Part shown: piece by piece, positions 17,237 to 30,002 of the stretch
Layout of the letters: the number at the start of each line of letters is the position of its first letter
How positions within the stretch are numbered: position 1 is the stretch's first letter
DNA from: Lentibacter sp. XHP0401
GTDB lineage: Bacteria; Pseudomonadota; Alphaproteobacteria; Rhodobacterales; Rhodobacteraceae
Assembly (NCBI RefSeq): GCF_025751535.1
Contig: NZ_JAOWLC010000003.1
Span: 1-64,000, forward strand
Length of the DNA: 64,000 nucleotides
Direction: 5' to 3'
Notes under the pieces: model-generated
What the model was told of the DNA's origin: nothing
The model's input: the letters and a program-made list of their open reading frames with translations, nothing else
Database searches by the model: none
Program-made: the position numbers and the translations under genes

Positions 17237-17265
17237 GTTGCAAACCCTCACATTGGTGCATCCTG

Positions 17266-17281
17266 ATGTTAGCGCACCCAC
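17266..17281. promoter_or_regulatory. Possible LacI-type operator half-site upstream of the LacI gene
   Basis: ATGTTAGCGC at 17266-17275 equals the left half of the ATGTTAGCGCTAACAT-type operators used by gluconate-GntR-like LacI proteins. The right half (ACCCAC) is degenerate. It lies 30-45 bases before the regulator start. Supported by one half-site only. Confidence 0.3.
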
Positions 17282-17347
17282 CTCAACCCCCGCAAGCGGC
17301 TTTGGGGCTGACACAGCCAACGCAAGCCGCTATGCACCTCCCCAAAC

Positions 17348-17424
17348 GGCCCCGTGGCTCAACTGGATAGAGCAGCCCCCTCCTAAGGGGCAGGTTGCAG
17401 GTTCGAATCCTGCCGGGGTCACCA
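17348..17424 (+). tRNA. tRNA-Arg (anticodon CCT)
   Basis: A full cloverleaf can be folded by eye. The acceptor is GGCCCCG/CGGGGTC (one G-T pair), the D-stem GCTC/GAGC with loop AACTGGATA, and the anticodon stem GCCCC/GGGGC with loop CTCCTAA, giving anticodon CCT at 17382-17384. The T-arm is GCAGG-TTCGAAT-CCTGC. The discriminator is A and the CCA end is encoded (17422-17424). It reads AGG codons. It lies between two leftward genes on the opposite strand; no integrase or attachment-site duplication is seen. Confidence 0.96.
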
Positions 17425-17483: not shown

Positions 17484-19106
17484 TCACTCGGCTTCGGCCA
17501 AGGCGCGTTCGTAGTCTTGCCCCGGTATCGCATCAAGCAGGCTGCGCGTGTAATCAGTGTCAGGGTCGTGCAGCACTTTACCCACTGGCCCGGCTTCAAC
17601 AATGCGGCCTTTCTGCATAACGATGATACGGTCGCAAATGCGCGCCGCGACGCGCAGATCATGCGTGATGAACAGCATCGAAAGGTGCAGGCGTTCCTTT
17701 AGCTCGGCGAGCAAATCCAGCACTTGCGCTTGTATAGAAACATCGAGCGCCGAGACCGCCTCGTCAGCGATAATGATCGACGGATCAAGCGCCAAAGCCC
17801 GCGCGATACCGATGCGCTGACGCTGCCCGCCAGAGAACTCATGCGGAAACCGCATCATAGCCGACGCATCCAGCCCGACCAATTCAAGCAGTTCGCGCGC
17901 CTTGGTCTGTGCATCCGCCTTGGGTGTGCCAAAAGCAATCAACCCTTCTGTCAAAATACGAGAGACTCTCGCCCGCGGATTCAGCGATGAAAACGGGTCT
18001 TGAAAAATCATCTGAAGCTTGCGGCGCTGATCGCGGAGTTCCGCGCCAGACATATGCGCAATGTCGGCTCCGTCCATCAAAACACGCCCCCCGTCAGGGT
18101 CAAGAAGGCGCACAATACAGCGGCCCACGGTAGATTTTCCCGAACCGGATTCGCCCACAATCCCGATGGTCTCGCCGGCATATAGCTCAAAGCTCACGTC
18201 CTGCACCGCCTTTACAACGCGCCGCTTGCCGAAAAGCGTGCCCGAACCCGTTGAAAACGTCTTCTGCAGGCCCTCAACCGTCAGGATCGGCGTATGCTTA
18301 ACCTCTTCAACATCGCCGCCCCGCGTCAGACGCGGGATCGCATCAATCAAAGCACGCGTGTAGGGGTGCTGCGGCTTGAGCAACACATCATCCGCAGAGC
18401 CGCTTTCGACAATCTCGCCTTTCTGCATAACAATCACACGGTCGGCGATATCGGCCACAACACCAAAATCATGCGTGATAAAGATAACAGCCATCCCGCG
18501 CGATTTACGCAAATCTTCGATCAGCTTGAGAATCTGCGCCTGAGTCGTCACATCGAGCGCCGTCGTTGGCTCGTCCGCGATGAGGATGTCAGGCTCAAGC
18601 GCCAATGCCATCGCGATCATCACGCGCTGGCGTTGGCCGCCGGAAAGCTGGAAGGGATACGCGCGGATTGCTGCATCGGGATCAGGGATGCCGACCTCGT
18701 CAAGCAACTTCAACGCCCGTTCGCGGCGCTCCGCACCGTTCAGCGCACCATGCGCTTCAAACACTTCGGCAATTTGCGCACCGACCCGCATCAGCGGATT
18801 AAGCGCACTTAGAGGCTCCTGAAAGATCATCGAAATGCGCCCGCCCCGTAGCGGTAACATCTCCCGCTCGGACAGCCCTAAAATCTCCTTGCCATCAAAG
18901 GTGATCGAGCCGTTCACAGGCTTCACCCCCTGTGGCAACAAGCCCATGATCGCATTGGCAGACATGGATTTACCCGACCCGCTCTCACCGACAATGCAGA
19001 GAATCTCACCTGCCGCGAGATCAAAATTGATATGCTTGGCAGCATACAATCGGTCCGCCCCGACAGGCAGAGCGATATCAAGGTCACGGATACTCAGCAG
19101 GGTCAT
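17484..19106 (-). CDS. Peptide/opine-type ABC transporter, fused double ATPase
   Basis: A 540-residue protein made of two ABC ATPase domains in tandem, a DppD-DppF fusion. Domain 1 has Walker A GESGSGKSMSAN, signature LSGGQRQRVMIAMAL and Walker B DILIADEPTTALDV. Domain 2, from about residue 270, has GESGSGKSTVGR, FSGGQRQRIGIARAL and SIIIADEAVSALDV. Each is followed by the oligopeptide-transporter C-terminal extension. It powers import through the two permeases encoded upstream, overlapping the nearer by 4 bases. Together with the binding protein this is a complete family 5 importer for a peptide, opine or other amine-type solute. Confidence 0.94.
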   Translation of the reverse strand: MTLLSIRDLDIALPVGADRLYAAKHINFDLAAGEILCIVGESGSGKSMSANAIMGLLPQGVKPVNGSITFDGKEILGLSEREMLPLRGGRISMIFQEPLSALNPLMRVGAQIAEVFEAHGALNGAERRERALKLLDEVGIPDPDAAIRAYPFQLSGGQRQRVMIAMALALEPDILIADEPTTALDVTTQAQILKLIEDLRKSRGMAVIFITHDFGVVADIADRVIVMQKGEIVESGSADDVLLKPQHPYTRALIDAIPRLTRGGDVEEVKHTPILTVEGLQKTFSTGSGTLFGKRRVVKAVQDVSFELYAGETIGIVGESGSGKSTVGRCIVRLLDPDGGRVLMDGADIAHMSGAELRDQRRKLQMIFQDPFSSLNPRARVSRILTEGLIAFGTPKADAQTKARELLELVGLDASAMMRFPHEFSGGQRQRIGIARALALDPSIIIADEAVSALDVSIQAQVLDLLAELKERLHLSMLFITHDLRVAARICDRIIVMQKGRIVEAGPVGKVLHDPDTDYTRSLLDAIPGQDYERALAEAE

Positions 19107-19942
19107 TCGGATTTCCTTGTCAAACGCGGATTGAGCGCATCGTTCAGGCCTTCGCCGATCAGGTTAAGCGCCAGAACAGTCAACAAAATCGCCATCCCGG
19201 GCAGGAAGGAAAGCCACCATGCCGTGCGGATAACCGTGCGCGCCGCGCCGATCATATAGCCCCAGGACATGATGTTCGGATCACCTAGGCCCAGAAACGA
19301 AAGCGAACTTTCCAGCAAAATAGCCTGCGCCACCATGAGTGACGCCAGCACAATGATAGGCGGCAGCGCGTTGGGCAGGATATGGCGCAGGATAATCTGA
19401 GTGTTGCCAAGGCCCGAAAGAGTCGCAGCTTCCACAAACTCCCTTGTGCGCAGGGAGAGAACCTCGCCCCGCACAAGCCGTGCAACGGGGGGCCACGAAA
19501 CAATCGAAATAGCGATGATGACAAACGTCAAACTCGGCTGAAAAATCGCCAGAAGAACAATAGCCAAAGCAAAGCTTGGGATCGTTTGGAAAAACTCGGT
19601 AAATCGCATCAGCGCATCATCCGTGCGCCCCGCAAAATACCCCGCCAATGCGCCGACAGGCACACCAATCGCCAGCGCCACGATGGTCGAGACAAGCCCG
19701 ACAAGCAGGCTGACATAAGCACCATGGGCAAGCCCTGCCATCACGTCACGCCCCAGCGCATCTGTGCCAAGCATCAGCCCGTCTTGCGTAAAAGGTGGCA
19801 GAAAGGGCCGCTGAACCATCTTCCACGGGCTTTGTGGAAAAAGGACTGGTGCGAGAATGGCGGTTGCGATCACAAAAGCCAGAATGAACAGGCCAATCAC
19901 AGCACCGCGATTATAACGAAAACGTTTCCAGAAATCCTTCAT
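19103..19942 (-). CDS. ABC transporter permease (DppC type)
   Basis: A 279-residue inner-membrane permease of the DppC/OppC family. A short cytoplasmic N-terminus (MKDFWKRFRYNRGAVIGLFILAFVIATAILAPVLFP) leads into the first helix. The ATPase-coupling EAA loop reads EFVEAATLSGLGNTQIILRHILPNALPPIIV, and the C-terminus is the usual LNLIGEGLNDALNPRLTRK. It overlaps both neighbouring genes by 4 bases, so stoichiometry with the DppB-type permease is translationally coupled. Confidence 0.93.
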   Translation of the reverse strand: MKDFWKRFRYNRGAVIGLFILAFVIATAILAPVLFPQSPWKMVQRPFLPPFTQDGLMLGTDALGRDVMAGLAHGAYVSLLVGLVSTIVALAIGVPVGALAGYFAGRTDDALMRFTEFFQTIPSFALAIVLLAIFQPSLTFVIIAISIVSWPPVARLVRGEVLSLRTREFVEAATLSGLGNTQIILRHILPNALPPIIVLASLMVAQAILLESSLSFLGLGDPNIMSWGYMIGAARTVIRTAWWLSFLPGMAILLTVLALNLIGEGLNDALNPRLTRKSE

Positions 19943-20910
19943 GTTGTAAGCCTTATCCGCGGATCGACGATGACATAGACAACATCCGTGATCAGGTTGA
20001 ACAGCAAGACCATCGCTGCCGAAATGTAAAAGACCCCAAGGATCACATTGTAATCCCGCTGGTTTATCGCCTCAAACATCAGCCGTCCGATACCGGGCCA
20101 AGCAAAGACAGTCTCCGTCAGGATCGCTCCGCCAAAGATTTGCCCTGCCTGAAGCCCCGCCAGCGTAATGACAGGCAACAGCGCGTTGCGCAAAATGTGC
20201 CGCCGTTGGATCACACCGCGGGTCAGCCCCTTGGCGCGGGCAGTCTTTACAAAATCAAGCCGTGACACTTCCAGCATCGAGGCACGGGTCATGCGCATAT
20301 AAATCGCCATGAAGAACAACCCCAGCGTCGAAGCTGGCAGCACCAAATGCTTGGCCACATCCAGAACATGGGCCATCCCCGTATAACCCGCTCCAATGGT
20401 CGAATAGCCAAACCCTGGCAACCATCCCAACCAGACCGAAAACACCAAAGTCGCCATCAGCGCGACCCAGAACAAAGGAGTGGCATAAAAGAGCAATGCG
20501 AGCGTCGAGATGATCGTATCGCCCCAGCTGCCCTGCCGCGCAGACGCCGCCACACCGGCAATCACACCCAGCACGAGCGAAAGCACAAAAGCCACCCCCG
20601 TCAGCAGAAGCGTTGCTGGCAAACGGTCACCGATCAACTCGGCAACCGGCATCTGCTGGCGAAAAGAATAGCCGAGATCAAGCTGGACTGCGCCTTTGAT
20701 ATAAATCCAAAGCTGCACATAAAGCGGCTGGTCAAGGCCAAACCGCGCACGCAGGTCCGTAAGGAATTTTTCATCCGCCGCACCCGCCTCGCCAGCCATA
20801 ACAGCGGCAGGGTCGCCCGGCGCGGCATGGATCAGCAGAAAGTTGAAAACAAGAATGGCCAGCAGGATAAACACCGCCTTGACCAACCTGCCCAAAATGA
20901 AACGTATCAC
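19939..20910 (-). CDS. ABC transporter permease (DppB type)
   Basis: A 323-residue permease of the DppB/OppB family. The N-terminus (MIRFILGRLVKAVFILLAILVFNFLLIHAAPGDPA) and the EAA loop (DFVKTARAKGLTRGVIQRRHILRNALLPVITLAGLQ) are characteristic, and about six membrane helices are visible. It is the first permease after the binding-protein gene, from which it is separated by 72 bases holding a strong hairpin. Confidence 0.93.
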   Translation of the reverse strand: MIRFILGRLVKAVFILLAILVFNFLLIHAAPGDPAAVMAGEAGAADEKFLTDLRARFGLDQPLYVQLWIYIKGAVQLDLGYSFRQQMPVAELIGDRLPATLLLTGVAFVLSLVLGVIAGVAASARQGSWGDTIISTLALLFYATPLFWVALMATLVFSVWLGWLPGFGYSTIGAGYTGMAHVLDVAKHLVLPASTLGLFFMAIYMRMTRASMLEVSRLDFVKTARAKGLTRGVIQRRHILRNALLPVITLAGLQAGQIFGGAILTETVFAWPGIGRLMFEAINQRDYNVILGVFYISAAMVLLFNLITDVVYVIVDPRIRLTT

Positions 20911-20941
20911 ACTGTCCGCCCCGTTTATGTGTTGCGTAATT

Positions 20942-20965
20942 CCCGGGCCACATAGGCGGCCCGGG
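20942..20965 (-). terminator. Hairpin between binding-protein and permease genes
   Basis: CCCGGGCC (20942-20949) and GGCCCGGG (20958-20965) form a perfect 8-bp GC stem with an 8-base loop. In the direction of transcription it is followed by AATTACG rather than a T run. It is therefore more likely an mRNA-stabilising or attenuating element that keeps binding-protein mRNA in excess than a full terminator. Confidence 0.6.
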
Positions 20966-20982
20966 TTTTCAGGCGTTTGCCC

Positions 20983-22548
20983 TTACTTCGTATCGATCCA
21001 TACATCGCGGAAGCCGTCATTCACGCCAAAGGCCGTGTTAACCGGGTTCTTGATGTTGCAACGGTAGATCGTCGGGAAGCCAAGCTCCAGCAGCCATATA
21101 TTCGGAACGTCCGACACAATCTGATCCTGAATTGTCTTATAGGCCGCCTTACGGTCATCAGGGTTCGCCATCAGCGCCGCTTCTTCGAACATTTTGTCCG
21201 TTTCGGGGTTCTGATAGTTGGCAACGTTGTTCCAGGGTGAACCGGGGGCAGCATTGCTGCCCATGTAGCTGCGTGACACACCAAGTGCCGGGTCGCCGTA
21301 TTGGTAGAGATATGTAAATGCCAGATCAAAATCGCGGTCGGAAATTTTCTGGTTCCAACCCGCCACATCCGAGGGCACAATCTCGGTGTCCATACCGATC
21401 TCGCTCAGGTTCTGTTTGACCGCCTCGGCCCAACGCTGCCATGTCTCGCCATAAGGCAGGCCCAGGATGCGGATCTTCTCGCCGTTATAGCTGCTGTCTG
21501 CCAACAGTGCTTTGGCCTTTTCAGGGTCATAGGAAATGTCAGGTGTGTCACCATCCCAGAACCGTGTCGATGACGTAAACGGACCAGTCGCGACCTTGCC
21601 CAAACCGTTCCAGAGCGCGTCTTTGGCAAAGTTGCGATCGACGGCATGCATAATCGCACGGCGCACATTCACATCATCCAGCGGCTTGTTGTTCATGTTC
21701 ACCCACATCCACGACAGCGGCCCGAAATACTCCCAGCCCTTGTCCGTAATGCAGGTATTTTCCATCGCCTGAATCCGCGATACATCGAAGTTCTCGACAG
21801 AGCCGCCGGGCAACACATCAACCTTGCCGGTCTCGTAAGCAACCGCACGCGAAGCCGCATCCGGAATCACATGGTAATAAACCTCATTCACATAAGGCTT
21901 GCCTTCCATGTAGTAGTCTTCGTTCTTCACAAGGTGGATAAAGCTACCCTTTTCCCACTTGTCGAACTTGAAGGGGCCGGTGCCAATAGGCGTGTTGTTC
22001 GCCTCGTTGGTGGCAAAGTCGGTGCCTTCATAGATATGTTTCGGAATCATCGGCGCCGTTCCGGGCTCGAAGATACCGATGAAAGGGCCAAACGGCTGCT
22101 TCAGATTAAACACTACAGTGTGTTCGTCAGGCGTCTCGATGCTTTCGACATGCTCCATATAGGTGCGCATACGCGAGTGGCTCTCACGCAGGAACTTGTC
22201 CATCGAAAATTCCACATCCGCCGAAGTAAACGGCGTGCCGTCATGGAAGGTTACACCCTGACGCAGCTTGAACGTGTAGGTCTTACCATCTTCCGAAATC
22301 TCCCATGATTCCGCCAACTGCCCCTCGGGCTTCAGGTCAAAATCATAGCGCAGGAGGCTTTCGTAAATGTCCCCCCCAACCATCTGTGTTGGGCCGTTCT
22401 GAACAAGGCCAAGCATCAGGCTGGGCGGCTCGGGCTGAATGACAACATTAAGTGTCCCGCCTGATTGCGGCTCACCATCTTGCGCTGCCAGCGGACTGGC
22501 AAGCGACAGCGCCAGTAGGGCGGCCGCCAAATTGATAGGTTTAAGCAT
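20983..22548 (-). CDS. ABC transporter substrate-binding protein, family 5
   Basis: A 521-residue periplasmic binding protein of the oligopeptide/nickel/opine family (SBP_bac_5). It has a signal peptide (LKPINLAAALLALSLASPLAAQD). The family core reads LAESWEISEDGKTYTFKLRQGVTFHDGTPFTSADVEFSMDKFL, and later VRRAIMHAVDRNFAKDALWNGLGKVATGPF. I chose the ATG at 22548, with GGGGA upstream, because it starts directly at the signal sequence; an in-frame ATG 48 bases upstream would add a charged tail. The ligand cannot be read from sequence; the gene context suggests an amine-containing compound. Confidence 0.93.
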   Translation of the reverse strand: MLKPINLAAALLALSLASPLAAQDGEPQSGGTLNVVIQPEPPSLMLGLVQNGPTQMVGGDIYESLLRYDFDLKPEGQLAESWEISEDGKTYTFKLRQGVTFHDGTPFTSADVEFSMDKFLRESHSRMRTYMEHVESIETPDEHTVVFNLKQPFGPFIGIFEPGTAPMIPKHIYEGTDFATNEANNTPIGTGPFKFDKWEKGSFIHLVKNEDYYMEGKPYVNEVYYHVIPDAASRAVAYETGKVDVLPGGSVENFDVSRIQAMENTCITDKGWEYFGPLSWMWVNMNNKPLDDVNVRRAIMHAVDRNFAKDALWNGLGKVATGPFTSSTRFWDGDTPDISYDPEKAKALLADSSYNGEKIRILGLPYGETWQRWAEAVKQNLSEIGMDTEIVPSDVAGWNQKISDRDFDLAFTYLYQYGDPALGVSRSYMGSNAAPGSPWNNVANYQNPETDKMFEEAALMANPDDRKAAYKTIQDQIVSDVPNIWLLELGFPTIYRCNIKNPVNTAFGVNDGFRDVWIDTK

Positions 22549-22656
22549 TTGTTTTCCCCGTTGGTTATTGTTGGTCGTCTTTTTCTGAAGGTTCACTTTA
22601 GTATTTTTCCTTCAGCACCGGGCAAATGTCTTCTTCAGGCATTAACCCGTGTCTCT

Positions 22657-23313
22657 CTATTCCGTGGTAAATGTTTCGATATAAGCCAGCATACCTTCCC
22701 TTGCATCTTCGATATCAGCTCGCATCGCGGCAGCCGCCGCCGCAGGATCACGCGCCTCGCAGGCCGCCACAATGTTACGATGGTTTCGCACCAACTCAAC
22801 CTTGTTACGCGCATAATATCCCGCAATCAGCGGCCCCATACGCAGCCACAGGCGGCTCAGAATGCCCAGCAGCACAGGCATGTCTGCAATCTCTGCCAAA
22901 GCAAAATGAAACTGCTGGTTATACTCTACAGCCTTGCCCCAGCGCCCGCTTTTGGCCGCCGCTTCGTCGCGTGCAATAATCTTTTTCAGACGCGCAATAT
23001 CCTTGGCATCCGCCAACTCGGCAGCGCAGGCCGCCGCAAGCCCCTCAAGCTCACATCGGATACGAGCAATCTCCAGATACTGAACATCCGTCAACACAGG
23101 CACACGCACGTCGCGCATCGAGTGTTGAACCAGAGCTTCACCTCGCAAGAGGCGCTGCACGGCGTCCCTCACAGGGGTCGAGCTGGTCCCGAGTGACTCA
23201 GCAAGCCCCCTGATTGTTATTTTTTGATTCGGCCGTAACTTCCCGCTGACAAGGTCCTGACTGACCCTGTCATAGATAACATCCCCCATAGAAGCTTGAT
23301 TGATCTGGTCCAT
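22657..23313 (-). CDS. GntR-family regulator with FCD domain
   Basis: A 218-residue regulator. The N-terminal winged helix reads QDLVSGKLRPNQKITIRGLAESLGTSSTPVRDAVQRLLRGEALV. The all-helical C-terminal FCD effector domain (ARIRCELEGLAAACAAELAD; FHFALAEIADMPVLLGILSRLWLRMGPLI; NHRNIVAACEARDPAAAAAAMRADIEDA) carries the Asp/His pattern typical of metal- and carboxylate-binding FCD proteins. It lies between the ABC transporter genes and the divergent catabolic genes. A perfect palindrome 38 bases upstream of its start is the likely operator, so it probably controls both sides and itself. Confidence 0.92.
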   Translation of the reverse strand: MDQINQASMGDVIYDRVSQDLVSGKLRPNQKITIRGLAESLGTSSTPVRDAVQRLLRGEALVQHSMRDVRVPVLTDVQYLEIARIRCELEGLAAACAAELADAKDIARLKKIIARDEAAAKSGRWGKAVEYNQQFHFALAEIADMPVLLGILSRLWLRMGPLIAGYYARNKVELVRNHRNIVAACEARDPAAAAAAMRADIEDAREGMLAYIETFTTE

Positions 23314-23350
23314 TTTACCTTTGGGTCTGAACGGCGTTTCGCATCTTATT

Positions 23351-23369
23351 TTGATGCATCATGCATCAA
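23351..23369. promoter_or_regulatory. Perfect 19-bp palindrome, likely GntR/FCD operator
   Basis: TTGATGCATCATGCATCAA is a perfect inverted repeat with 9-bp arms and a central C. It lies in the 123-bp gap between the divergent gntR-type and deacetylase genes, directly upstream of a promoter-like pair. Size and symmetry fit an FCD-type GntR dimer site. The protein-site pairing is inferred from position. Confidence 0.75.
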
Positions 23370-23371
23370 TG

Positions 23372-23400
23372 TTGTTGCTCCTGCAAATCAAAACTGTAAT
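23372..23400 (+). promoter_or_regulatory. Candidate sigma-70 promoter of the rightward catabolic operon
   Basis: TTGTTG (23372-23377), a 17-base spacer and TGTAAT (23395-23400) give an acceptable -35/-10 pair, 37 bases before the deacetylase start. The operator palindrome abuts its upstream edge, where a bound repressor would block polymerase. Confidence 0.45.
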
Positions 23401-23436
23401 GCTTTTCCGAAACCACTCCAGCCCACAGGATACAGA

Positions 23437-24468
23437 ATGAAGGTCTTTTTCGACGAGCGTCAACTGCTCCACGCGCCGACACATTATTTTCGCCGCGGTG
23501 CCGCCATGCCGCATCAGGAACAGCCCCGGCGCGCCGAAATTTTGCGCGACATGCTCAAGAATGAAGGCTTCGAAATATCCAAACCCGCCGATCACGGCCT
23601 CGCTCCGATCAAGGCTGTGCACAATCCCGATTATGTCGATTTTCTCCCCGATGCGCACGCCCGATTCGTTGCAAGCGCAGGCACCGAGGCTTTGGCCATC
23701 CCGACGATGCACCCCGGCCTGCGACGCGGTAAAGAGCCCAAGGATGTTCACGGCCAGCTGGGTTGGTGGATGACAGATACGTCAACACCCCTTACAGAAG
23801 GGTCATGGCAAGCCATGTATTGGTCGGCTCAAACCGCAGTTGAAGCCGCCGAAGCCGTCATGTCAGGAGCCCGCGCAGCCTATGCGCTATGCCGCCCGCC
23901 AGGGCATCACGCGATGCGGGATTGTGCCAACGGCTTCTGCTTCTTTAACAACGCCTCCATCGCGGCCAACCACCTCACGCAAAAGTTCAAAAAAGTCGCG
24001 CTGATAGACATCGACGTTCACACCGGCAACGGCTCGCTTGATATCCTCTACGAGCGCGGCGACATTTTCTTCTGCTCACTGCATCCCGACCCTGCTACCT
24101 ACCCCACCTTCTATCTCGGCCATGCCGATGAAACAGGCGAAGGAGAAGGGGAAGGCACCTCGCTCAACATCCTGCTGGAGCAAGGCGCAAGCCAGGACGA
24201 TGTTCTGGCCGCACTCGAAAAAGGTATCGCGGCCATTCGTGATTTCGGAGCCGAGGCACTCGTGGTCTCGCTCGGCTTCGACATGGCCGCCGATGATCCT
24301 TTGGCCGCCGTTGCCGTCTACCCAGAAGGCTTCGCCGAAATGGCCCGCCGCCTTGCGGCCCTCAACCTTCCAACAGCACTCGTTCAGGAGGGCGGATATC
24401 TTGGCCCGTCTCTGGCCGACAATGCCAAATCCTTCCTCACCACCTTTCGTAAGGAAACAGCAGAATGA
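23437..24468 (+). CDS. Histone-deacetylase-family amidohydrolase (acetylpolyamine amidohydrolase-like)
   Basis: A 343-residue zinc hydrolase of the HDAC/AcuC/AphA superfamily, which removes acetyl groups from acetylated amines. Catalytic motifs are present: CRPPGHHAMRDCANGFCFFNN (His-His pair), LIDIDVHTGNG (Asp and His zinc ligands) and SLGFDMAADDPL (Asp zinc ligand). Bacterial members act on acetylpolyamines, acetyl-lysine-like amines or other small amides. The ATG at 23437, after AGGA, starts with MKVFFDERQLLHAPTHYF, like AphA; the frame is open further up but has no support. It leads the rightward operon and overlaps the next gene by 4 bases. Confidence 0.9.
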   Translation: MKVFFDERQLLHAPTHYFRRGAAMPHQEQPRRAEILRDMLKNEGFEISKPADHGLAPIKAVHNPDYVDFLPDAHARFVASAGTEALAIPTMHPGLRRGKEPKDVHGQLGWWMTDTSTPLTEGSWQAMYWSAQTAVEAAEAVMSGARAAYALCRPPGHHAMRDCANGFCFFNNASIAANHLTQKFKKVALIDIDVHTGNGSLDILYERGDIFFCSLHPDPATYPTFYLGHADETGEGEGEGTSLNILLEQGASQDDVLAALEKGIAAIRDFGAEALVVSLGFDMAADDPLAAVAVYPEGFAEMARRLAALNLPTALVQEGGYLGPSLADNAKSFLTTFRKETAE

Positions 24469-26027
24469 GCACCGCACCCAAGGAAATGAACGGCGCAGAA
24501 AGCGTTGTGCGCAGCCTGCACGCAGGCGGCGTTGACGTTTGCTTCGCCAACCCGGGTACATCCGAAATGCAATTCGTCGATGCGCTCGATCGCACCAAAC
24601 TTATGCACTGCGTTCTGGGCCTCTTCGAAGGGGTCGTGACAGGGGCCGCCGATGGCTATGCCCGCATGGCTGGCAAGCCCGCTGTCACCTTGCTGCATCT
24701 CGCCCCCGGCTTCGCCAATGCCGCCGCCAACCTGCACAACGCCCGAAAGGCACGTGTGCCGATGGTCAACCTTGTCGGTGATCACGCCTTGCGTCATCAG
24801 CAATACGATGCCCCCCTCTCAGCCGATGTTGCAGGCGCCTGCGCGCCTTTCAGTGATTGGGTGCGCTCGGGGCGCGATGCAGGTAGCTTCGCCGCCGATG
24901 CCATGACAGCTTTGTCCGTGGCCAAAAGCAAACCCAACAAAATCGCAACCCTGATCGCCCCAGCCGATATCGGCTGGGATGCAGGCGGAAAAATGGCCGA
25001 TGTGATAGCACCTCAAGACCCTGTCCCGCTCGATGAGGTCGCCCTGAACGCGGCTATCAACGCGCTGGAGAGCGGCGAGAAAACCGTGATCATCGCGGGC
25101 AATTCGGTGCTCGAAAACCCCGATGCGCTCGCCCTGCTCCAAGGCATTTCCGAGAAAGCGGGTGTTGACGTTCTTGCACCCACATCAAACCGCAGAATAG
25201 AGCGGGGAGCAGGCCGCTTTGCCATTTCAAAAATCCCCTACCCGATCAATCTGGCAATAGAATGTCTCGCGCCCTACTCCCGCGCCATTCTCGTTGAAAC
25301 TGTTCCGCCCGTGGCGTTCTTCGCCTATCCTGGCAAGCCAAGTCTCTTGCTGCCGGTGGGTTGCAACATCGTCACGCTCGCGGGCGTCGAAGGCGATGGC
25401 CCCGCCGCTCTGGCAGCGCTGGCCGATCGTATCGGCGCAACCGGCGGCAAGCCGCAGGATGCTGCTCCGCTTCCCGTTCCACAAGCGGGAGCTATCACGC
25501 TTGATAACATCGGTGCTGCTCTCGCCAACGCTCTGCCCGATCACGCCATTATCATTGATGAGGCGGTCACTTCGGGCGCAGCCCTCTACCCCGCAGGCAA
25601 CACCGCCGCCCCCAATTCATGGCTGGCCCTCACAGGCGGCTCTATCGGCATAGGTATTCCGCTCTCCGCAGGTGCTGCCATAGCCTGCCCCGACCGTCCC
25701 GTTATCACTCTACAGGCCGACGGCTCCGCGATGTATACTATTCAAGGTCTCTGGACGCAGGCGCGCGAAGGCTCGAACGTCACAACAATCATCCTCTCCA
25801 ACCGTTCTTACGAAATTCTCAAGGGCGAGTTGCACAACGTCGGCGCACAGCCCGGCCCGGATGCTCTCAGCATGTTGAACCTTGATCGCCCCAACCTCGA
25901 CTTTGTCGCAATGGCCAAAGGCATGGGCGTTCCGGGGCGGCGGGTTGAAGACGTGAAAGACCTGATGCAAGCAATCGCCGACGCCACAAAGGAGCCCGGC
26001 CCCTACCTTATTGAAGCAGCGCTCTGA
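24465..26027 (+). CDS. ThDP-dependent acetolactate synthase-like / benzoylformate decarboxylase-like enzyme
   Basis: A 520-residue thiamine-diphosphate enzyme with the three-domain layout of acetolactate synthases and 2-oxoacid decarboxylases. The N-terminal domain has FANPGTSEMQFVDAL and the cofactor-activating glutamate in GLFEGVVTGAADGYARM. The C-terminal domain has the ThDP/metal motif QADGSAMYTIQGLWTQAREGSNVTTIILSNRSYEIL (ADGS in place of GDGS). The FAD-binding middle domain looks reduced. It is closer to the MdlC-like group often annotated 'acetolactate synthase large subunit' than to biosynthetic IlvB, and no IlvH-type small subunit follows. The substrate is unknown; it would handle a 2-oxoacid formed in this pathway. 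Confidence 0.88.
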   Translation: MSTAPKEMNGAESVVRSLHAGGVDVCFANPGTSEMQFVDALDRTKLMHCVLGLFEGVVTGAADGYARMAGKPAVTLLHLAPGFANAAANLHNARKARVPMVNLVGDHALRHQQYDAPLSADVAGACAPFSDWVRSGRDAGSFAADAMTALSVAKSKPNKIATLIAPADIGWDAGGKMADVIAPQDPVPLDEVALNAAINALESGEKTVIIAGNSVLENPDALALLQGISEKAGVDVLAPTSNRRIERGAGRFAISKIPYPINLAIECLAPYSRAILVETVPPVAFFAYPGKPSLLLPVGCNIVTLAGVEGDGPAALAALADRIGATGGKPQDAAPLPVPQAGAITLDNIGAALANALPDHAIIIDEAVTSGAALYPAGNTAAPNSWLALTGGSIGIGIPLSAGAAIACPDRPVITLQADGSAMYTIQGLWTQAREGSNVTTIILSNRSYEILKGELHNVGAQPGPDALSMLNLDRPNLDFVAMAKGMGVPGRRVEDVKDLMQAIADATKEPGPYLIEAAL

Positions 26028-26118
26028 TGATAATTCTCATCTTCCAGTGTTGCACATCCGAAGGCATCAAAAGATGAGGGGCGCAACCGTCAGACAACCG
26101 GGTGGCTTGCCCCCTGCC

Positions 26119-27186
26119 ATGGTCATGAGTGCTGAAACAGATTGCGCCGATAAAGCCGATCTCCTCGCCCACGATCCGCCCCTGTTCTCTCCCGCCGAGG
26201 CAGCAGAGCTTGCGCAGCATCTCTATGGGGTTGTGGGCAGCATCCGGCCCTTGGCGGCAGAGAAGGATGCGAATTTTCTCATCACGCTCTCCTCTGGCGA
26301 GGAGGCTCTCCTGAAAATCACCAACGCGGTCGAAGACCGCGCCGTTACCGATATGCAGACAGCCGCCCTGATGCACCTCGCAGCAACCGATCCCTCACTG
26401 CCCGTCCAGCGCATTTGCGCCAGCCTTGCTGGCAACGCGAGCGAAATTGTAACAGCCGCCAACGGTCAGAGCCATGTTGTGCGACTCATGTCATTCCTTG
26501 GCGGAACCATCCTGAGCAGTGCCGCCCCGGGGGCAGGCCTGCACCACGAACTTGGCGCATTTCTTGCACGGGTCACACTGGGTTTGCGCGGGTTCTTTCA
26601 CCCTGCGGCTGGCCATGTTCTGCAATGGGATATCAAACAGGCCGCAAGCCTTCGGCCTATGCTGGACGCGGTACAAGACACAAGCCTCCGCACCCGTCTC
26701 ATGACCATACTTGACCGCTTCGATGCCGAAATAGCCCCCCGCCTGCCGCGCCTGCGCGCCCAGGTTGTGCACAATGATTTCAACCCGCACAATGTCCTGA
26801 TCAACAGCCCGACAGGCACGCACCCCATCGGGCTGATCGACTTTGGTGATATCGTGCATACGCCCATTGCTTGCGATCTGGCCATCGCCTGCTCATACCA
26901 GATCGGCGAAGGCGCAAGCGCCCTGAGCCATATCTGCGAAATGGTCACAGGCTATGCCGGCAAGCTGCCGCTCGAGCGCGAAGAGGTCGCGCTTCTGCCC
27001 GATCTCATCCGCTTACGCCACGCCACAACGCTGGCCATCGGCGCTTCACGCGCCCGGCGCTATCCCGAAAATGCCAGCTACATCTTACGCAACGCCGCTG
27101 CCTGCTTGCGCGGCATGGATGCACTCGACCACATCGGAGATGCAACCACCATAGAGGCTCTGCACGCCGCCGCCCGAACGGAGTAA
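26119..27186 (+). CDS. Aminoglycoside-phosphotransferase-fold kinase, hydroxylysine-kinase-like
   Basis: A small-molecule kinase of the APH/choline-kinase fold. Visible are the nucleotide lysine strand (EEALLKITN), the catalytic loop VVHNDFNPHNVLI and the metal-binding IGLIDFGDIVHTPIACDLAIA. This last pattern matches the hydroxylysine kinase (HYKK/AGPHD1) group better than antibiotic kinases. The next gene is a class III PLP enzyme of the matching phospho-lyase group, a strong functional hint. The start is uncertain: ATGs at 26119 and 26125 best fit the domain border, but the frame is open from an ATG at 26011 inside the previous gene. Confidence 0.85.
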   Translation: MVMSAETDCADKADLLAHDPPLFSPAEAAELAQHLYGVVGSIRPLAAEKDANFLITLSSGEEALLKITNAVEDRAVTDMQTAALMHLAATDPSLPVQRICASLAGNASEIVTAANGQSHVVRLMSFLGGTILSSAAPGAGLHHELGAFLARVTLGLRGFFHPAAGHVLQWDIKQAASLRPMLDAVQDTSLRTRLMTILDRFDAEIAPRLPRLRAQVVHNDFNPHNVLINSPTGTHPIGLIDFGDIVHTPIACDLAIACSYQIGEGASALSHICEMVTGYAGKLPLEREEVALLPDLIRLRHATTLAIGASRARRYPENASYILRNAAACLRGMDALDHIGDATTIEALHAAARTE

Positions 27187-27192
27187 CCCGCC

Positions 27193-28509
27193 ATGACCAT
27201 GGTTAACGCCTACAACGCCACCGCCGACAAAAATCTTGATCCTGAAGATAAAGCGCTCATTGCACGCCGTACCAAAGCGCTGGGGCCAGCCTATCGCCTG
27301 TTCTACGAAGAGCCGTTGCATATTGTGCGCAGCGAGGGTGTCTGGCTCTGGGACAAACACGGCAAGAAATATCTCGACGCCTACAACAATGTCGCCTCCG
27401 TGGGGCACTGCCATCCGCGCGTTGTGCAGGCAATTTCACAACAGCTTGGCGTGCTCAACACCCACACCCGCTACCTGCACGAAGATGTCGTCACCTATGC
27501 CGAGCGGCTTCTGGCAACACTGCCCGACGCACTGGGCCACATGATGTTCACCTGCACAGGCTCCGAAGCAAACGACCTCGCGCTCCGCCTCACCCGTAGC
27601 TACACGCGGCGGCAAGGCGTCATCGTCACCCGCCTCGCCTATCATGGCCTCACCGAAGCCGTGTCCGAGCTGTCTCCCTCGCTAGGCGAGTTTGTGCCGC
27701 GCGGCCCCCGTGTGCGGCTGATAGATGCGCCAAATCCGCTACATGTGCCGCCAGAAGACCAAGGCGCGCTGTTTGCCACCAATCTGGCCAAGGCCATTGC
27801 CGACATGCGCGCCGACGGGGTCGAACCCGCAGCGCTCCTTGTCGATACGTTGTTCTCCAGCGATGGCCTCTACCCCGATCCAGTCGGCTTTCTAAAGCCC
27901 GCAGTTGATCTGATCCGCGCCGAAGGTGGCCTTTTCATTGCCGACGAAGTTCAGGCAGGCTTTGCCCGCACAGGCAGTGCCTTCTGGGGCTTCCAGCGCC
28001 ATGGTCTCGTGCCTGACATCGTCACCATGGGCAAGCCGATGGGCAACGGGTTTCCCCTCGCAGGTGTCGCCATGCGCCCGGAAATTATCAAGGAATTCGG
28101 GGAGCGTGCGCGCTACTTCAACACCTTCGGAGGCAACCCTGTAGCCGCAGCCGCAGGAATGGCCGTTCTCGATGTCATCGAAGAGGAGGCCCTCCAAAGC
28201 AATTCGCAGCACATGGGCACTTTCGTCAAACAGGGTCTCTCTGACATCGCCACGCGGCACATAGCCATCAGCGATGTGCGCGGCGCAGGGCTTTTTCTCG
28301 CGGTAGAGTGTGTTTCAAACGGTGCACCAAACGCCACATTGGCCAGCTTCGTCGTGAATCACCTGCGCCAGAACGGCGTGCTCATCAGCGCAACCGGTCC
28401 CGATGGAAACATCCTCAAAATCCGCCCCCCCCTCGTCTTGCAACAGCCTGAAGCGCAGTTCTTTCTCGATACCGTCGACGCAGCCTTTAACGCCGCTAAT
28501 CCGCAATAA
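27193..28509 (+). CDS. Class III aminotransferase-fold PLP enzyme, likely O-phosphoamine phospho-lyase
   Basis: A 438-residue PLP enzyme. The core motif FIADEVQAGFARTGSAFWGFQRHGLVPDIVTMGKPMGNGFPLAGV contains the PLP lysine in TMGKPMGNG. That string is typical of the AGXT2-like group, which includes ethanolamine-phosphate and 5-phosphohydroxylysine phospho-lyases. Those enzymes eliminate phosphate and ammonia from a phosphorylated hydroxyamine to give an aldehyde. It starts 7 bases after the kinase gene, whose product would be its substrate. An ordinary omega-aminotransferase activity cannot be excluded from sequence alone. Confidence 0.88.
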   Translation: MTMVNAYNATADKNLDPEDKALIARRTKALGPAYRLFYEEPLHIVRSEGVWLWDKHGKKYLDAYNNVASVGHCHPRVVQAISQQLGVLNTHTRYLHEDVVTYAERLLATLPDALGHMMFTCTGSEANDLALRLTRSYTRRQGVIVTRLAYHGLTEAVSELSPSLGEFVPRGPRVRLIDAPNPLHVPPEDQGALFATNLAKAIADMRADGVEPAALLVDTLFSSDGLYPDPVGFLKPAVDLIRAEGGLFIADEVQAGFARTGSAFWGFQRHGLVPDIVTMGKPMGNGFPLAGVAMRPEIIKEFGERARYFNTFGGNPVAAAAGMAVLDVIEEEALQSNSQHMGTFVKQGLSDIATRHIAISDVRGAGLFLAVECVSNGAPNATLASFVVNHLRQNGVLISATGPDGNILKIRPPLVLQQPEAQFFLDTVDAAFNAANPQ

Positions 28510-28542
28510 CCCACATCGCTCACCATAAAACTGTCTGAACAC

Positions 28543-29070
28543 ATGCTAAATTCAATTACACCCAACCCCGATTTCCGCATTCGCCACGCCACAGGCGAAG
28601 ATGCCGCCCTTGTCGTCGACTACATGAAAAAGCTCGGCACATACCAGAAAATGGCCGACAAAATCACTGCAACAGCCCCGGATATCAAACGCCTGCTTGA
28701 TGAGAGTCTGGGAGAGGCCATCTTCGGCATCTACAAAGGACAGGTCATAGGCTTTCTCTATTTCTGTCAGAAATCATCCGCCTTCACAGGCCGTTCGGGG
28801 CTCTATGTCGATGGCTTTCTGGTTGATACAGATGTCCGCCACCTCGGGTTTGGCAAACTCATGTGGGCCTATCTCAGTAAGCTAGCTCTGGAGCGCGGCT
28901 GCCTGTTCCTCGAATGGGGATGCCTGGATTGGAATACTCCCGCCATTGCGTTTTACAGAGGCCTCGGCGCCTACAGCGTCGATGACATGACTATTTTCAG
29001 GTTCACGCCAGACGCCCTGAAGGCCAACGCTCTTACAGCAGATACAGCCAGTTTACGCGAAATACCCTGA
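28543..29070 (+). CDS. GNAT N-acetyltransferase, SSAT/thialysine-acetyltransferase-like
   Basis: A 175-residue acetyl-CoA-dependent N-acetyltransferase. The acetyl-CoA site is GFLVDTDVRHLGFGKLMWAYLSKLALERGCLFLEWGCLDWNTPAIAFYRGLGA. The LEW-x-LDWN-PAIAFYRGLGA ending is the hallmark of the spermidine/spermine acetyltransferase (SSAT) group, which acetylates diamines, polyamines and lysine analogues. It sits 33 bases after the aminotransferase gene and so closes the catabolic operon, whose first gene is a deacetylase of the opposite activity. The substrate is inferred as an amine of the same pathway. Confidence 0.88.
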   Translation: MLNSITPNPDFRIRHATGEDAALVVDYMKKLGTYQKMADKITATAPDIKRLLDESLGEAIFGIYKGQVIGFLYFCQKSSAFTGRSGLYVDGFLVDTDVRHLGFGKLMWAYLSKLALERGCLFLEWGCLDWNTPAIAFYRGLGAYSVDDMTIFRFTPDALKANALTADTASLREIP

Positions 29071-29119: not shown

Positions 29120-29162
29120 TTGACCAAATTTTAATGTTTCCATATTTCATAAATTATGGAAA
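29120..29162 (+). promoter_or_regulatory. Ars promoter with palindromic operator overlapping the start codon
   Basis: TTGACC (29120-29125) is a good -35; a -10-like TATTTC or ATAAAT lies at 29143-29154. TTTCCATA (29137-29144) and TATGGAAA (29155-29162) form a perfect 8-bp inverted repeat around a 10-base partly symmetric centre containing ATTT-CAT-AAAT. The second arm contains the ATG at 29156. Transcription from this promoter would start at or next to the ATG, and no Shine-Dalgarno sequence precedes it. The mRNA is therefore probably leaderless and the ArsR-type dimer would cover both promoter and start. Confidence 0.7.
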
Positions 29163-29989
29163 TATTGCTAACGGATCAACTTGCCGCCCTCAGTCATCCG
29201 CAGAGAATGGCCGTATTCCGCCTTCTCATGCGGCGCTGCCCTGATGAGCTTCCCGCAGGCGAAATAGCGCAGGTGCTGGCGCTCAAGCCCAGCACCGCCT
29301 CGGTCTATCTCGCGGCGCTCACACAGGCTGGCCTTATCACCCAGCGCCGCGACGGCACGCGCCTGCTCTACACAGTCAATCTCAACGCCACCCGCGCTGT
29401 TATCGCAGGTCTTGTGCTTGATTGCTGCCAAGGCCGCACCGATCTCTGCCCGCCTCACTTCTCGGGCATCCTCGAAAGCTTCCCTCCTGTGTCGGACCAA
29501 AAATTCAACGTCCTCTTCATCTGCACGGGCAACTCTGCCCGCTCGATCTTTGCCGAAACGATCCTGCGCGACATGGCCGGTGACAGGTTCACCGCCTACT
29601 CGGCAGGCACAGCATACCGTTCCGCGCTCAACCCCTTCGCCGTTGAAATGCTGAAATCAAAGGGGCATGATGTGTCCCCGCTACGCTCCAAAAACCTGAC
29701 CGGATTTCAAGGTTCCGATGCGCCGCAAATGGACTTTGTCTTTACCGTCTGTGACCTTGCCGCCAATGAGGAATGCGCCGCATGGCAGGGCCAGCCCGTC
29801 TCGGGCCATTGGGGCATGCCCGACCCCGTCAAAGCCCAAGGCACAGATGCTGAAAAGCGCCTCGCCTTTCAGCAAGCCTACGGCGCGCTGCACAACAGGA
29901 TCACCGCCTTCACCTCCCTGCCGTTCCAGGCCCTCGACCGTGCAACGCTCCAAACCCGCGTTGATGCCATCGGTAAAAAACCCTCATAG
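29156..29989 (+). CDS. Fused ArsR repressor - arsenate reductase (LMW-PTP type)
   Basis: A 277-residue fusion. Residues 1-105 are an ArsR/SmtB winged helix ([49 protein letters not shown]). A Cys-Cys pair at 90-91 and Cys98 resemble the C-terminal arsenite site of Acidithiobacillus-type ArsR. Residues 116-277 are a low-molecular-weight phosphatase-type arsenate reductase with P-loop CTGNSAR (Cys123-Arg129), relay cysteines Cys199 and Cys207 ([10 protein letters not shown]) and the Asp of MPDP. One protein would thus sense arsenite and make it from arsenate. It heads the ars operon with gapDH and arsJ. Confidence 0.92.
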
Positions 29990-30002
29990 AGGATTTCGCA
30001 AC

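What the first reader, a model, noticed from the sequence alone, without database searches (positions are those of the whole stretch)
17484..29070. Possible new catabolic system for an acetylated hydroxyamine or hydroxylysine-like compound
One regulator gene and one palindrome stand between a complete family 5 ABC importer and a rightward operon of five enzymes: HDAC-like deacetylase, ThDP enzyme, hydroxylysine-kinase-like kinase, AGXT2-like PLP enzyme and SSAT-like acetyltransferase. The kinase/phospho-lyase pair is known chemistry for hydroxylysine (and, for the lyase group, ethanolamine phosphate): phosphorylate the hydroxyl, then eliminate phosphate and ammonia to an aldehyde. A deacetylase before it and an acetyltransferase after it suggest that the substrate arrives N-acetylated, or that N-acetylation protects an amine. 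The ThDP enzyme fits no published version of that route that I know. The whole set looks like an undescribed pathway.
Basis: inference. Interest (0 to 1): 0.72.

Follow-up and report, generated by a model that had tools for sequence, protein, structure and literature searches.

The report
Operon for an N-acylated hydroxy-amine
This bacterium carries a conserved, jointly controlled set of genes that probably imports an unidentified nitrogen compound, strips off an acetyl group and breaks it down by phosphorylating a hydroxyl and removing phosphate and ammonia together; one deacylase gene that its relatives keep has been deleted here.

Summary
The genes are as reported: a family-5 ABC importer and a GntR/FCD regulator face an operon of HDAC-like deacetylase, ThDP enzyme, APH-type kinase, class III PLP enzyme and GNAT. 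It is not a chance collection. Of 17 related loci compared (16 genome contigs, 1 plasmid), 15 have ThDP–M20 deacylase–kinase–PLP in that order, and the 14 whose contig reaches further have HDAC and importer too. Corrections: the module includes an M20 (ArgE/DapE-type) deacylase, of which the window keeps only about 14 codons; the GNAT is in 1 of the 17 loci, though unrelated-looking HDAC–GNAT pairs occur on rhizobial plasmids. The palindrome is a perfect 19-bp site, kept in all 12 of these loci that keep GntR and degenerate or absent in the 2 that lost it. The PLP enzyme is closest to ammonio-phospholyases. HDAC–kinase–PLP sets recur in Chelatococcus, Bosea and a Comamonadaceae plasmid but are rare overall. 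Best reading: catabolism of an N-acylated vicinal hydroxy-amine. Hydroxylysine is unproven, the ThDP step unexplained, completeness in this genome open.

The parts
17484..19106 (-). fused two-domain ATPase of family-5 (Opp/Dpp/Gsi-like) ABC importer
   Evidence: 83-90% identical in 14 of 17 related loci
19103..19942 (-). ABC permease, OppC/DppC type
   Evidence: 92-97% in the same 14 loci
19939..20910 (-). ABC permease, OppB/DppB type
   Evidence: 91-98% in the same 14 loci
20983..22596 (-). solute-binding protein family 5 (probable start about 22548)
   Evidence: best solved relative AgaA 6hlx 165.7 bits; 51-67% to the binding protein near HDAC genes in Paracoccus liaowanqingii, Nitratireductor, Qingshengfaniella, Azospirillum and Chelatococcus
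22657..23313 (-). GntR/FCD regulator, same strand as and upstream of the importer genes
   Evidence: present in 12 of the 14 loci that have importer and HDAC, and in L047
23351..23369 (.). 19-bp perfect palindrome TTGATGCATCATGCATCAA, probable GntR operator between the divergent genes
23434..24468 (+). HDAC-like deacetylase of the acetylpolyamine amidohydrolase group
   Evidence: 82-91% in the 14 loci with importer
24465..26027 (+). ThDP enzyme, NCBIfam PRK07586 (named 'acetolactate synthase large subunit')
   Evidence: 674.5 bits against cut-off 363; closest solved structures benzoylformate decarboxylases
26030..26077 (+). remnant of a deleted M20 (ArgE/DapE, PRK06837) deacylase gene: last ~14 codons and stop
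   Evidence: gene present at this place in relatives
26119..27186 (+). APH-fold small-molecule kinase, probable true extent
   Evidence: PF01636; invariant HNDFNPHN and DFGD; model pLDDT 87.2; fold matches
27193..28509 (+). PLP enzyme, class III fold, ammonio-phospholyase group
28543..29070 (+). GNAT acetyltransferase, SSAT/thialysine-acetyltransferase-like; probably not a core part
   Evidence: found in only 1 of 17 related loci, L035

Best explanation
This is one GntR-controlled catabolic locus for an imported, N-acylated amine that carries a hydroxyl next to the amine. The family-5 importer takes the compound up. The HDAC-like enzyme removes an acetyl (or other short acyl) group from a terminal amine; in relatives an M20 deacylase removes a second acyl group, perhaps from an alpha-amino acid nitrogen. 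The kinase phosphorylates the hydroxyl and the PLP enzyme eliminates phosphate and ammonia, leaving an aldehyde or ketone. The ThDP enzyme decarboxylates or otherwise cleaves a 2-oxo-acid-like intermediate at an unknown point, and in 7 of 17 related loci an SDR dehydrogenase gene follows the ATPase gene. GntR controls both directions from the palindrome in response to the compound or an intermediate. Shown here: genes, conservation, operator conservation, family membership, gene deletion. Inferred: every reaction, their order, the substrate, and binding and sign of regulation.
For: Synteny: 15 of 17 loci have ThDP-M20-kinase-PLP and 14 of them HDAC and importer as well; the fifteenth contig (L036) starts at ThDP. 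Operator kept in 12 of 12 of these loci with GntR, degenerate or absent in 2 of 2 without. Phospholyase assignment by a margin of about 150 bits. Kinase-lyase coupling: in 198 genomes of the window's family, of 41 kinase matches 22 have a PLP match within about 1 kb on the same strand and 19 lie in open frames of 984-1111 aa, the size of the fused kinase/PLP proteins PRK06148/06149 (sorted by eye; the PLP half of the 19 was not checked). HDAC-kinase-PLP sets occur in Chelatococcus, Bosea and a Comamonadaceae plasmid with kinases from outside the window clade. ABC5+M20+HDAC without kinase in Nitratireductor and Qingshengfaniella; HDAC-ThDP adjacent in Azospirillum. HDAC keeps RPPGHH and EGGY, motifs tied to acetyl removal in PMC11532494 (section 16 read).
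Against: No substrate is identified and no activity was measured. The ThDP step has no place in any kinase/phospholyase route known to me. Elsewhere the parts are usually unlinked: in 289 Alphaproteobacteria, apart from the own genome, no two of HDAC, kinase and ThDP matches lie within 20 kb (compared by eye; strict cut-offs, and at most 7 or 5 candidates scored per genome). M20 is lost in the window and shortened in L045, so it is dispensable or the pathway is failing there. L047 has ThDP, M20, another family-5 importer and GntR but no HDAC, kinase or phospholyase; L033 has only HDAC and ThDP. The Chelatococcus GntR is 50% identical, yet its locus has no operator-like site with 2 mismatches or fewer; the nearest, with 3, lies before the binding-protein gene. 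The plasmid regions were chosen by eye from the hit lists, not sampled.
Confidence: 0.6

Rival explanations
1. The substrate is 5-hydroxylysine or its acetylated or peptide-bound forms (for example collagen-derived). The HDAC frees the epsilon amine, the M20 enzyme the alpha amine, and kinase plus lyase give 2-aminoadipate semialdehyde.
For: The closest solved PLP enzyme is A1RDF1, recalled as acting on phosphohydroxylysine and phosphoethanolamine; two deacylases fit a diamino acid; the importer resembles peptide and opine importers.
Against: No aldehyde dehydrogenase is among the window's operon genes; the flanks of the related loci were not scanned for one. No hydroxylysine kinase is among the listed solved relatives of the kinase. 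The ThDP step is not needed on that route.
Confidence: 0.2
2. The substrate is a small N-acylated amino alcohol (N-acyl-ethanolamine, N-acyl-1-amino-2-propanol and the like). The kinase/lyase pair works as in ethanolamine-phosphate or 1-amino-2-propanol-phosphate breakdown.
For: The second closest solved PLP enzyme is ethanolamine-phosphate phospho-lyase (342 bits); a microcompartment aminopropanol kinase is the third fold match; near-orthologous kinase/lyase genes lie with a sugar-type ABC importer and diol dehydratase.
Against: A family-5 importer and an ArgE/DapE-type M20 deacylase suit a larger, carboxylated compound; no aldehyde dehydrogenase is among the window's operon genes.
Confidence: 0.2
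3. The substrate is a hydroxylated diamine or short hydroxy-diamino acid, such as acylated 2-hydroxyputrescine (giving 4-aminobutanal, then GABA) or 2,4-diamino-3-hydroxybutyrate from hydroxyectoine (giving aspartate semialdehyde).
For: The Chelatococcus version carries gabT and an aldehyde dehydrogenase gene at one end, and at the other lies two genes away from eutB-eutC-doeA-doeB-ehu ectoine genes; the HDAC belongs to the acetylpolyamine amidohydrolase group.
Against: Between the two sets in Chelatococcus stand an Lrp/AsnC regulator and a PLP-dependent aminotransferase-family gene, so they may be only neighbours; the related loci were not searched for ectoine genes. The window HDAC has His where M. 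ramosa ApaH has the polyamine-binding Glu106, as promiscuous PsApaH does.
Confidence: 0.2
4. In this genome the locus is a broken relic: with M20 (and the SDR of some relatives) gone, the pathway no longer works.
For: M20 deletion remnant; no close M20 elsewhere in the genome (best 29% identity), although 14 M20-dimer-domain matches exist; no SDR match in the window, best 47% elsewhere.
Against: The other frames are intact, the operator is perfect, catalytic motifs are kept, and the window kinase's end branch (0.14) is not longer than that of its sister L035 (0.19; fork support 91/73).
Confidence: 0.25
5. Two unrelated pathways share one regulator: a deacylase/ThDP module and a kinase/lyase module, joined only by co-transport or co-occurrence of their substrates.
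For: Each module occurs alone: kinase-PLP pairs without common neighbours, GntR-kinase-PLP in Azospirillum p3, ABC-M20-HDAC without kinase, ThDP-M20-ABC-GntR in L047.
Against: Recurrent joining of HDAC to kinase-PLP with different kinase lineages.
Confidence: 0.2

Closest known systems
Hydroxylysine kinase + ammonio-phospholyases (AGXT2L1/2; 5-phosphohydroxylysine, phosphoethanolamine; Veiga-da-Cunha 2012, seen only as a reference in PMC8154272)
   Same: APH-fold kinase next to a class III PLP enzyme whose closest solved relatives are these lyases
   Different: Here combined with deacylases, a ThDP enzyme, an importer and a dedicated GntR; substrate unknown
Aminoacetone / 1-amino-2-propanol microcompartment pathway (aminopropanol kinase 6ef6; pathway details recalled)
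   Same: Same kind of kinase fold and, as recalled, a kinase followed by a class III PLP phospholyase
   Different: No shell protein or aldehyde dehydrogenase among the genes of the window's operon
Bacterial acetylpolyamine amidohydrolases (PA0321, PA1409, M. ramosa ApaH, PsApaH)
   Same: Same family with RPPGHH and EGGY motifs; acetylcadaverine/acetylputrescine catabolism shown in P. aeruginosa (PMC4784309, passages seen)
   Different: Gatekeeper PIS is PLA and Glu106 is His here; encoded with a kinase/lyase pair. In PMC11532494 'operon' occurs once, about AcuC, and 'aminotransferase' not at all
Fused kinase/aminotransferase proteins PRK06148/PRK06149
   Same: The kinase matches their N-terminal and the PLP enzyme their C-terminal part
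   Different: Separate genes here, each far below those families' cut-offs
Shinella / Agrobacterium plasmid cluster: sugar-type ABC, diol dehydratase, SDR, kinase, PLP, GntR
   Same: Kinase 58-62% and PLP enzyme 70-75% identical to the window's; same kinase clade, support 100/100
   Different: No HDAC match in the stretches and no M20, ThDP or family-5 importer among the listed genes within 10 kb (PLSDB gene tables are incomplete)
Rhizobial plasmid sets: class III-type aminotransferase, (3-keto-5-aminohexanoate cleavage protein), GNAT, HDAC
   Same: HDAC 45-49% identical to the window's (Shinella and Phyllobacterium), with a GNAT gene abutting it
   Different: GNAT only 24-27% identical; no kinase of this type among the listed genes; amino-acid or sugar importer instead of family 5 where one is shown

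Membership tests
Ammonio-phospholyase (ETNPPL/PHYKPL/A1RDF1 group) | Class III aminotransferase fold with conserved PLP lysine region | tested here: met
   PF00202 262 bits; MGKPMGNG aligned identically with 5g4i and 6tor; that its lysine binds PLP is recalled
Ammonio-phospholyase (ETNPPL/PHYKPL/A1RDF1 group) | Closer to known phospholyases than to transaminases | tested here: met
   364 and 342 bits against 189 for the next solved enzyme
Ammonio-phospholyase (ETNPPL/PHYKPL/A1RDF1 group) | Releases phosphate and ammonia from an O-phospho amino alcohol | not testable with these tools
   needs purified enzyme
Hydroxylysine kinase (HYKK) | APH-type fold with catalytic HxDxxxxN and DFG motifs | tested here: met
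   PF01636; HNDFNPHN and DFGD invariant in 14 sequences; meaning of the motifs recalled
Hydroxylysine kinase (HYKK) | Specific relationship to hydroxylysine kinases rather than other APH kinases | tested here: inconclusive
   No hydroxylysine kinase among the listed solved matches; best sequence match amicoumacin kinase 30 bits; best fold match homoserine kinase
Acetylpolyamine amidohydrolase (cluster 4) | RPPGHH and EGGY motifs | tested here: met
   alignment; motif meaning from PMC11532494 section 16
Acetylpolyamine amidohydrolase (cluster 4) | PIS at the gatekeeper position | tested here: not met
   PLA in the window
Acetylpolyamine amidohydrolase (cluster 4) | Glu106 for polyamine selectivity (M. 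ramosa) | tested here: not met
   His, as in promiscuous PsApaH; so deacetylase is claimed, polyamine specificity is not
Acetolactate synthase (name of NCBIfam PRK07586) | Family model above cut-off | tested here: met
   674.5 bits against 363
Acetolactate synthase (name of NCBIfam PRK07586) | Closest to true acetohydroxyacid synthases | tested here: not met
   benzoylformate decarboxylases 134.6 bits, best acetolactate synthase 88.5; not filed as acetolactate synthase
M20 ArgE/DapE deacylase in the operon | Gene present between ThDP and kinase | tested here: not met
   full length by tblastn in 14 of the 15 relatives with this gene order, shortened in L045, only a remnant in the window
FCD-type GntR regulator with its own operator | GntR + FCD domains and a conserved palindrome in the divergent gap | tested here: met
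   binding itself not testable here

The most novel reading that the evidence does not exclude
An undescribed pathway, spread patchily through roseobacters, other Alphaproteobacteria such as Chelatococcus, Bosea and Azospirillum, and some Betaproteobacteria, that scavenges doubly N-acylated hydroxy-diamino compounds. Two unrelated zinc deacylases (HDAC type and M20 type) unmask the amines, kinase and ammonio-phospholyase take out the amino alcohol, and a PRK07586 ThDP enzyme performs a C-C cleavage not so far linked to this chemistry. That would give a substrate class to the PRK07586 family and a non-polyamine metabolic role to HDAC-like deacetylases.
Probability: 0.4. Interest if true: 0.65.

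Novelty: new variant of a known kind. Interest (0 to 1): 0.5.

Why it matters
Thousands of bacterial HDAC-like deacylases are uncharacterised (PMC11532494, abstract start seen), and the 'acetolactate synthase' name of PRK07586 looks doubtful at least for this member. A conserved locus with a likely operator, an importer and five to six enzymes makes the substrate directly findable: one binding-protein screen or one transposon-fitness run could do it. It would add a class of compounds to the kinase/phospholyase route and could identify an acylated amine used as food by marine bacteria.

Tried and rejected
Neighbours of stand-alone kinase-PLP pairs (15 stretches fetched, one of them G167 with the full cluster): ten neighbouring proteins scanned with Pfam gave no common theme. 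ThDP neighbours in distant loci (hydantoinase, carbamoylase-like, aldehyde dehydrogenase, GABA transaminase, CoA transferases) vary too much to fix its reaction. Chance assembly of the window cluster: rejected by 15 of 17 syntenic loci. GNAT as a core part: rejected for this locus (1 of 17), although HDAC-GNAT pairs exist elsewhere. Classical acetylpolyamine catabolism: considered, but Glu106 and PIS are not kept and a kinase/lyase pair is not needed for it. SBP structure model: pLDDT 41, not used. The ORF pickers are crude, so counts were taken from tblastn. Plasmid hits: of 75 (ThDP), 312 (kinase) and 53 (HDAC) records found, 30, 60 and 53 were listed, and 10, 5 and 8 of these hits were opened, chosen by eye. 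The literature searches listed no paper whose title or abstract start describes this gene set; only open-licence PMC papers are held, only the top rows were seen, and only passages of three papers and one section were read.
Full report
What is there. The reported genes are all present. Leftward: GntR/FCD regulator, family-5 binding protein, two permeases and a fused two-domain ATPase. Rightward: HDAC-like deacetylase, ThDP enzyme, APH kinase, class III PLP enzyme and GNAT. The 120 bp between the two divergent starts hold a perfect 19-bp palindrome at 23351-23369. A tRNA-Arg (17348-17424) lies left of the locus and an ArsJ-type arsenical gene pair follows on the right.

Conservation. The sixteen with ThDP at 75-84% identity (L033-L048), plus a Tritonibacter mobilis plasmid (L147; a second Tritonibacter record was not examined), were compared gene by gene with tblastn. 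Fifteen of the 17 have ThDP, M20 deacylase, kinase and PLP enzyme in that order. Fourteen of these 15 have HDAC directly before ThDP and the same importer on the other strand; the fifteenth, L036, is a contig that starts at ThDP. GntR is in 12 of these 14 (missing in L038 and L039). An SDR gene follows the ATPase in 7 of the 17 (L034, L035, L040, L043, L045, L046, L048), and L047 carries one elsewhere. L033 has only HDAC and ThDP. L047 (Paracoccus alkanivorans) has GntR, a class III aminotransferase, ThDP, M20, a different family-5 importer (binding protein 28% identical) and the SDR, without HDAC, kinase or phospholyase. The GNAT is found only in L035, behind a DMT transporter. The remaining 64 of the 80 loci have ThDP at 48-70% identity, and tblastn found none of them with the window's HDAC or kinase.

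A deleted gene. In the window the ThDP stop is followed almost at once by the kinase frame; in the relatives a 429-aa M20 protein (PRK06837, 681 bits against cut-off 376, tested on L037) lies between. Window 26033-26077 reads ILIFQCCTSEGIKR-stop; the M20 gene of L035 ends LFIAEWCGTEDIKK-stop. The last 33 nt match at 22 of 33, and among 525,660 positions on both strands of 13 loci this is the only place with 21 or more matches; L034 and L040 match at 20 of 33, the other relatives at 6-18. So the gene was most likely lost, leaving its tail. No close M20 is found elsewhere in the genome (best 29% identity over part of the protein), though 14 matches to the M20 dimerisation domain exist. In L045 the M20 gene is shortened to a 203-aa frame that appears to keep both ends, a second erosion of the same gene. 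The window's other frames are intact, and the kinase's end branch (0.14) is not longer than that of its sister L035 (0.19; fork support 91/73), so there is no clear sign of general decay, but this is weak evidence; whether the pathway still works here is open.

Regulation. The palindrome core (TGATGCATNATGCATCA) occurs with at most one mismatch just upstream of GntR in all 12 of these loci that keep GntR and in L047, and with two mismatches upstream of the GntR-kinase-PLP trio of Azospirillum p3 (L156). In the loci held at that time (2.38 Mb) the only other place with at most two mismatches was the second site of the own genome. The two loci without GntR have a degenerate (L038, 3 mismatches) or no (L039) site. 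The own genome has this site and one further site with two mismatches at C24:15625, not followed up. This points to GntR as the regulator of both directions and to a small regulon. Against it: the Chelatococcus locus, whose GntR is 50% identical, has only a 3-mismatch site before its binding-protein gene, and in the window alone at least one match with up to three mismatches appears in 42 of 100 shuffles. Binding was not tested.

Enzymes. PLP enzyme: closest solved relatives are the phospholyase 5g4i (364 bits; recalled as A1RDF1 of Arthrobacter) and ethanolamine-phosphate phospho-lyase (6tor, 342 bits); the next, a racemase, has 189 bits. Kinase: APH family with invariant HNDFNPHN and DFGD; a model of good confidence (pLDDT 87.2) is nearest to homoserine kinase, amicoumacin kinase and a microcompartment aminopropanol kinase. 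HDAC: closest to acetylpolyamine amidohydrolases (263-245 bits), with RPPGHH and EGGY, but PLA instead of PIS at the gatekeeper position and His instead of Glu106 (meaning of these residues from PMC11532494 section 16). ThDP: over the PRK07586 cut-off but closer to benzoylformate decarboxylases (134.6 bits) than to acetolactate synthases (88.5), so the database name should not be trusted.

Elsewhere (plasmid records opened by choice, not sampled). Chelatococcus CO-6 has gabT-ThDP-ABC5-HDAC-GntR-Zn hydrolase-kinase-PLP-DMT-cupin with an aldehyde dehydrogenase at the left end; an Lrp/AsnC regulator and a PLP-dependent aminotransferase-family gene then separate it from eutB-eutC-doeA-doeB-ehu ectoine genes. 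The Zn hydrolase is 47% identical to the second one of Azospirillum and belongs with the carbamoylase-like M20 branch. A Comamonadaceae plasmid has ABC5-glyoxylate reductase-aminotransferase-HDAC-Zn hydrolase-DMT-GntR-HDAC-kinase-PLP; Bosea F3-2 has HDAC-kinase-PLP behind a different ABC importer. Paracoccus liaowanqingii has importer, M20, oxidoreductase, HDAC (71%), PLP, a gene annotated as phosphotransferase (not matched at 90 bits by the window kinase), SDR and an aminotransferase. Nitratireductor and Qingshengfaniella have importer, M20 and HDAC without kinase. Azospirillum has M20, importer, a second M20-type hydrolase, HDAC, ThDP and a 3-keto-5-aminohexanoate cleavage protein. Five of these binding proteins were compared and are 51-67% identical to the window's. 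The kinase tree puts the window type and the Shinella/Agrobacterium kinases in one clade (100/100) and the Chelatococcus, Comamonadaceae and Bosea kinases outside it (the Bosea branch is long), so the HDAC-kinase-PLP link seems to have arisen or been refreshed more than once. In 7 of the 53 plasmid records with an HDAC match a GNAT gene lies under or against the match; the three opened show aminotransferase, (cleavage protein in two), GNAT and HDAC in a row. Their GNATs are 24-27% identical to the window's.

Results against. In 289 Alphaproteobacteria, HDAC (76 genomes), kinase (18) and ThDP (55) matches are, apart from the own genome, never within 20 kb of each other (compared by eye; strict cut-offs, at most 7 or 5 candidates scored per genome). 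In the 198 genomes of the family, one per genus, only the own genome and G167 have ThDP and kinase together (by eye); G167's contig has the same length and gene layout as the Seohaeicola contig of L043, so it is probably the same genome. The locus is therefore a patchy accessory trait. The substrate could not be fixed: hydroxylysine, small amino alcohols, hydroxyputrescine, hydroxy-diaminobutyrate and hydroxy-GABA all fit the kinase/lyase chemistry; that list is inference.

Literature. Ten searches of the open PMC library listed nothing that by title or abstract start describes this gene set; most subscription papers are not held. Looked into: PMC8154272 (passages), PMC11532494 (passages, and section 16) and PMC4784309 (passages).

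Verdict. It is a conserved new combination built on known kinase/phospholyase and deacylase families.

Noticed in passing
29156-32254: Directly right of the locus: a frame that reads as ArsR fused to a low-molecular-weight phosphatase/arsenate reductase (by reading; no NCBIfam match at 1e-30), ArsJ-associated GAPDH and ArsJ, a known arsenate-efflux set.
   Followed up: partly
17348-17424: tRNA-Arg (anticodon cct) at the left edge of the locus, next to a LacI-type regulator 16211-17320 whose best NCBIfam models are gluconate-type repressors, below their cut-offs.
   Followed up: no
L154, L155: Shinella and Agrobacterium plasmids hold near-orthologues of the kinase/lyase pair with a sugar-type ABC importer, diol dehydratase large and small subunits, an SDR and a distant GntR: possibly a second undescribed amino-alcohol pathway.
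   Followed up: partly
L170, L171, L172: Rhizobial plasmids carry an aminotransferase, (in two of three) a 3-keto-5-aminohexanoate cleavage protein, a GNAT and an HDAC in a row; the cleavage protein of Azospirillum's HDAC-ThDP cluster is 66% identical to Shinella's. This looks like a pathway with a transiently acetylated amine.
   Followed up: partly
L049, L053: ThDP relatives (62-70% in L049-L055 and L061) sit in a different recurrent cluster with family-5 importer genes, a TRZ/ATZ-type amidohydrolase, an amino-acid ABC system, an N-carbamoylputrescine-amidase-like enzyme and a D-hydantoinase (identities taken from L049 and L053, several below cut-off).
   Followed up: partly
L037 15418-19631; L043 1-1966; L135: Beside the operon a second set: another HDAC (41-42%), a ~380-aa protein with no Pfam or NCBIfam match in L037, and in L037 and L135 a further class III PLP enzyme (glutamate-1-semialdehyde-aminomutase-like in L037) and an HTH-cupin regulator.
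   Followed up: partly
G000:C1:82224-83081: A second HDAC-family gene in the same genome (264 bits).
   Followed up: no
G000:C23:259480-260727: A second ammonio-phospholyase-like PLP gene in the same genome, 50% identical; the only kinase match at 1e-20 in this genome is the window's.
   Followed up: no
G000:C24:15625-15641: The only other GntR-operator-like site in the genome with at most 2 mismatches; neighbouring genes not examined.
   Followed up: no
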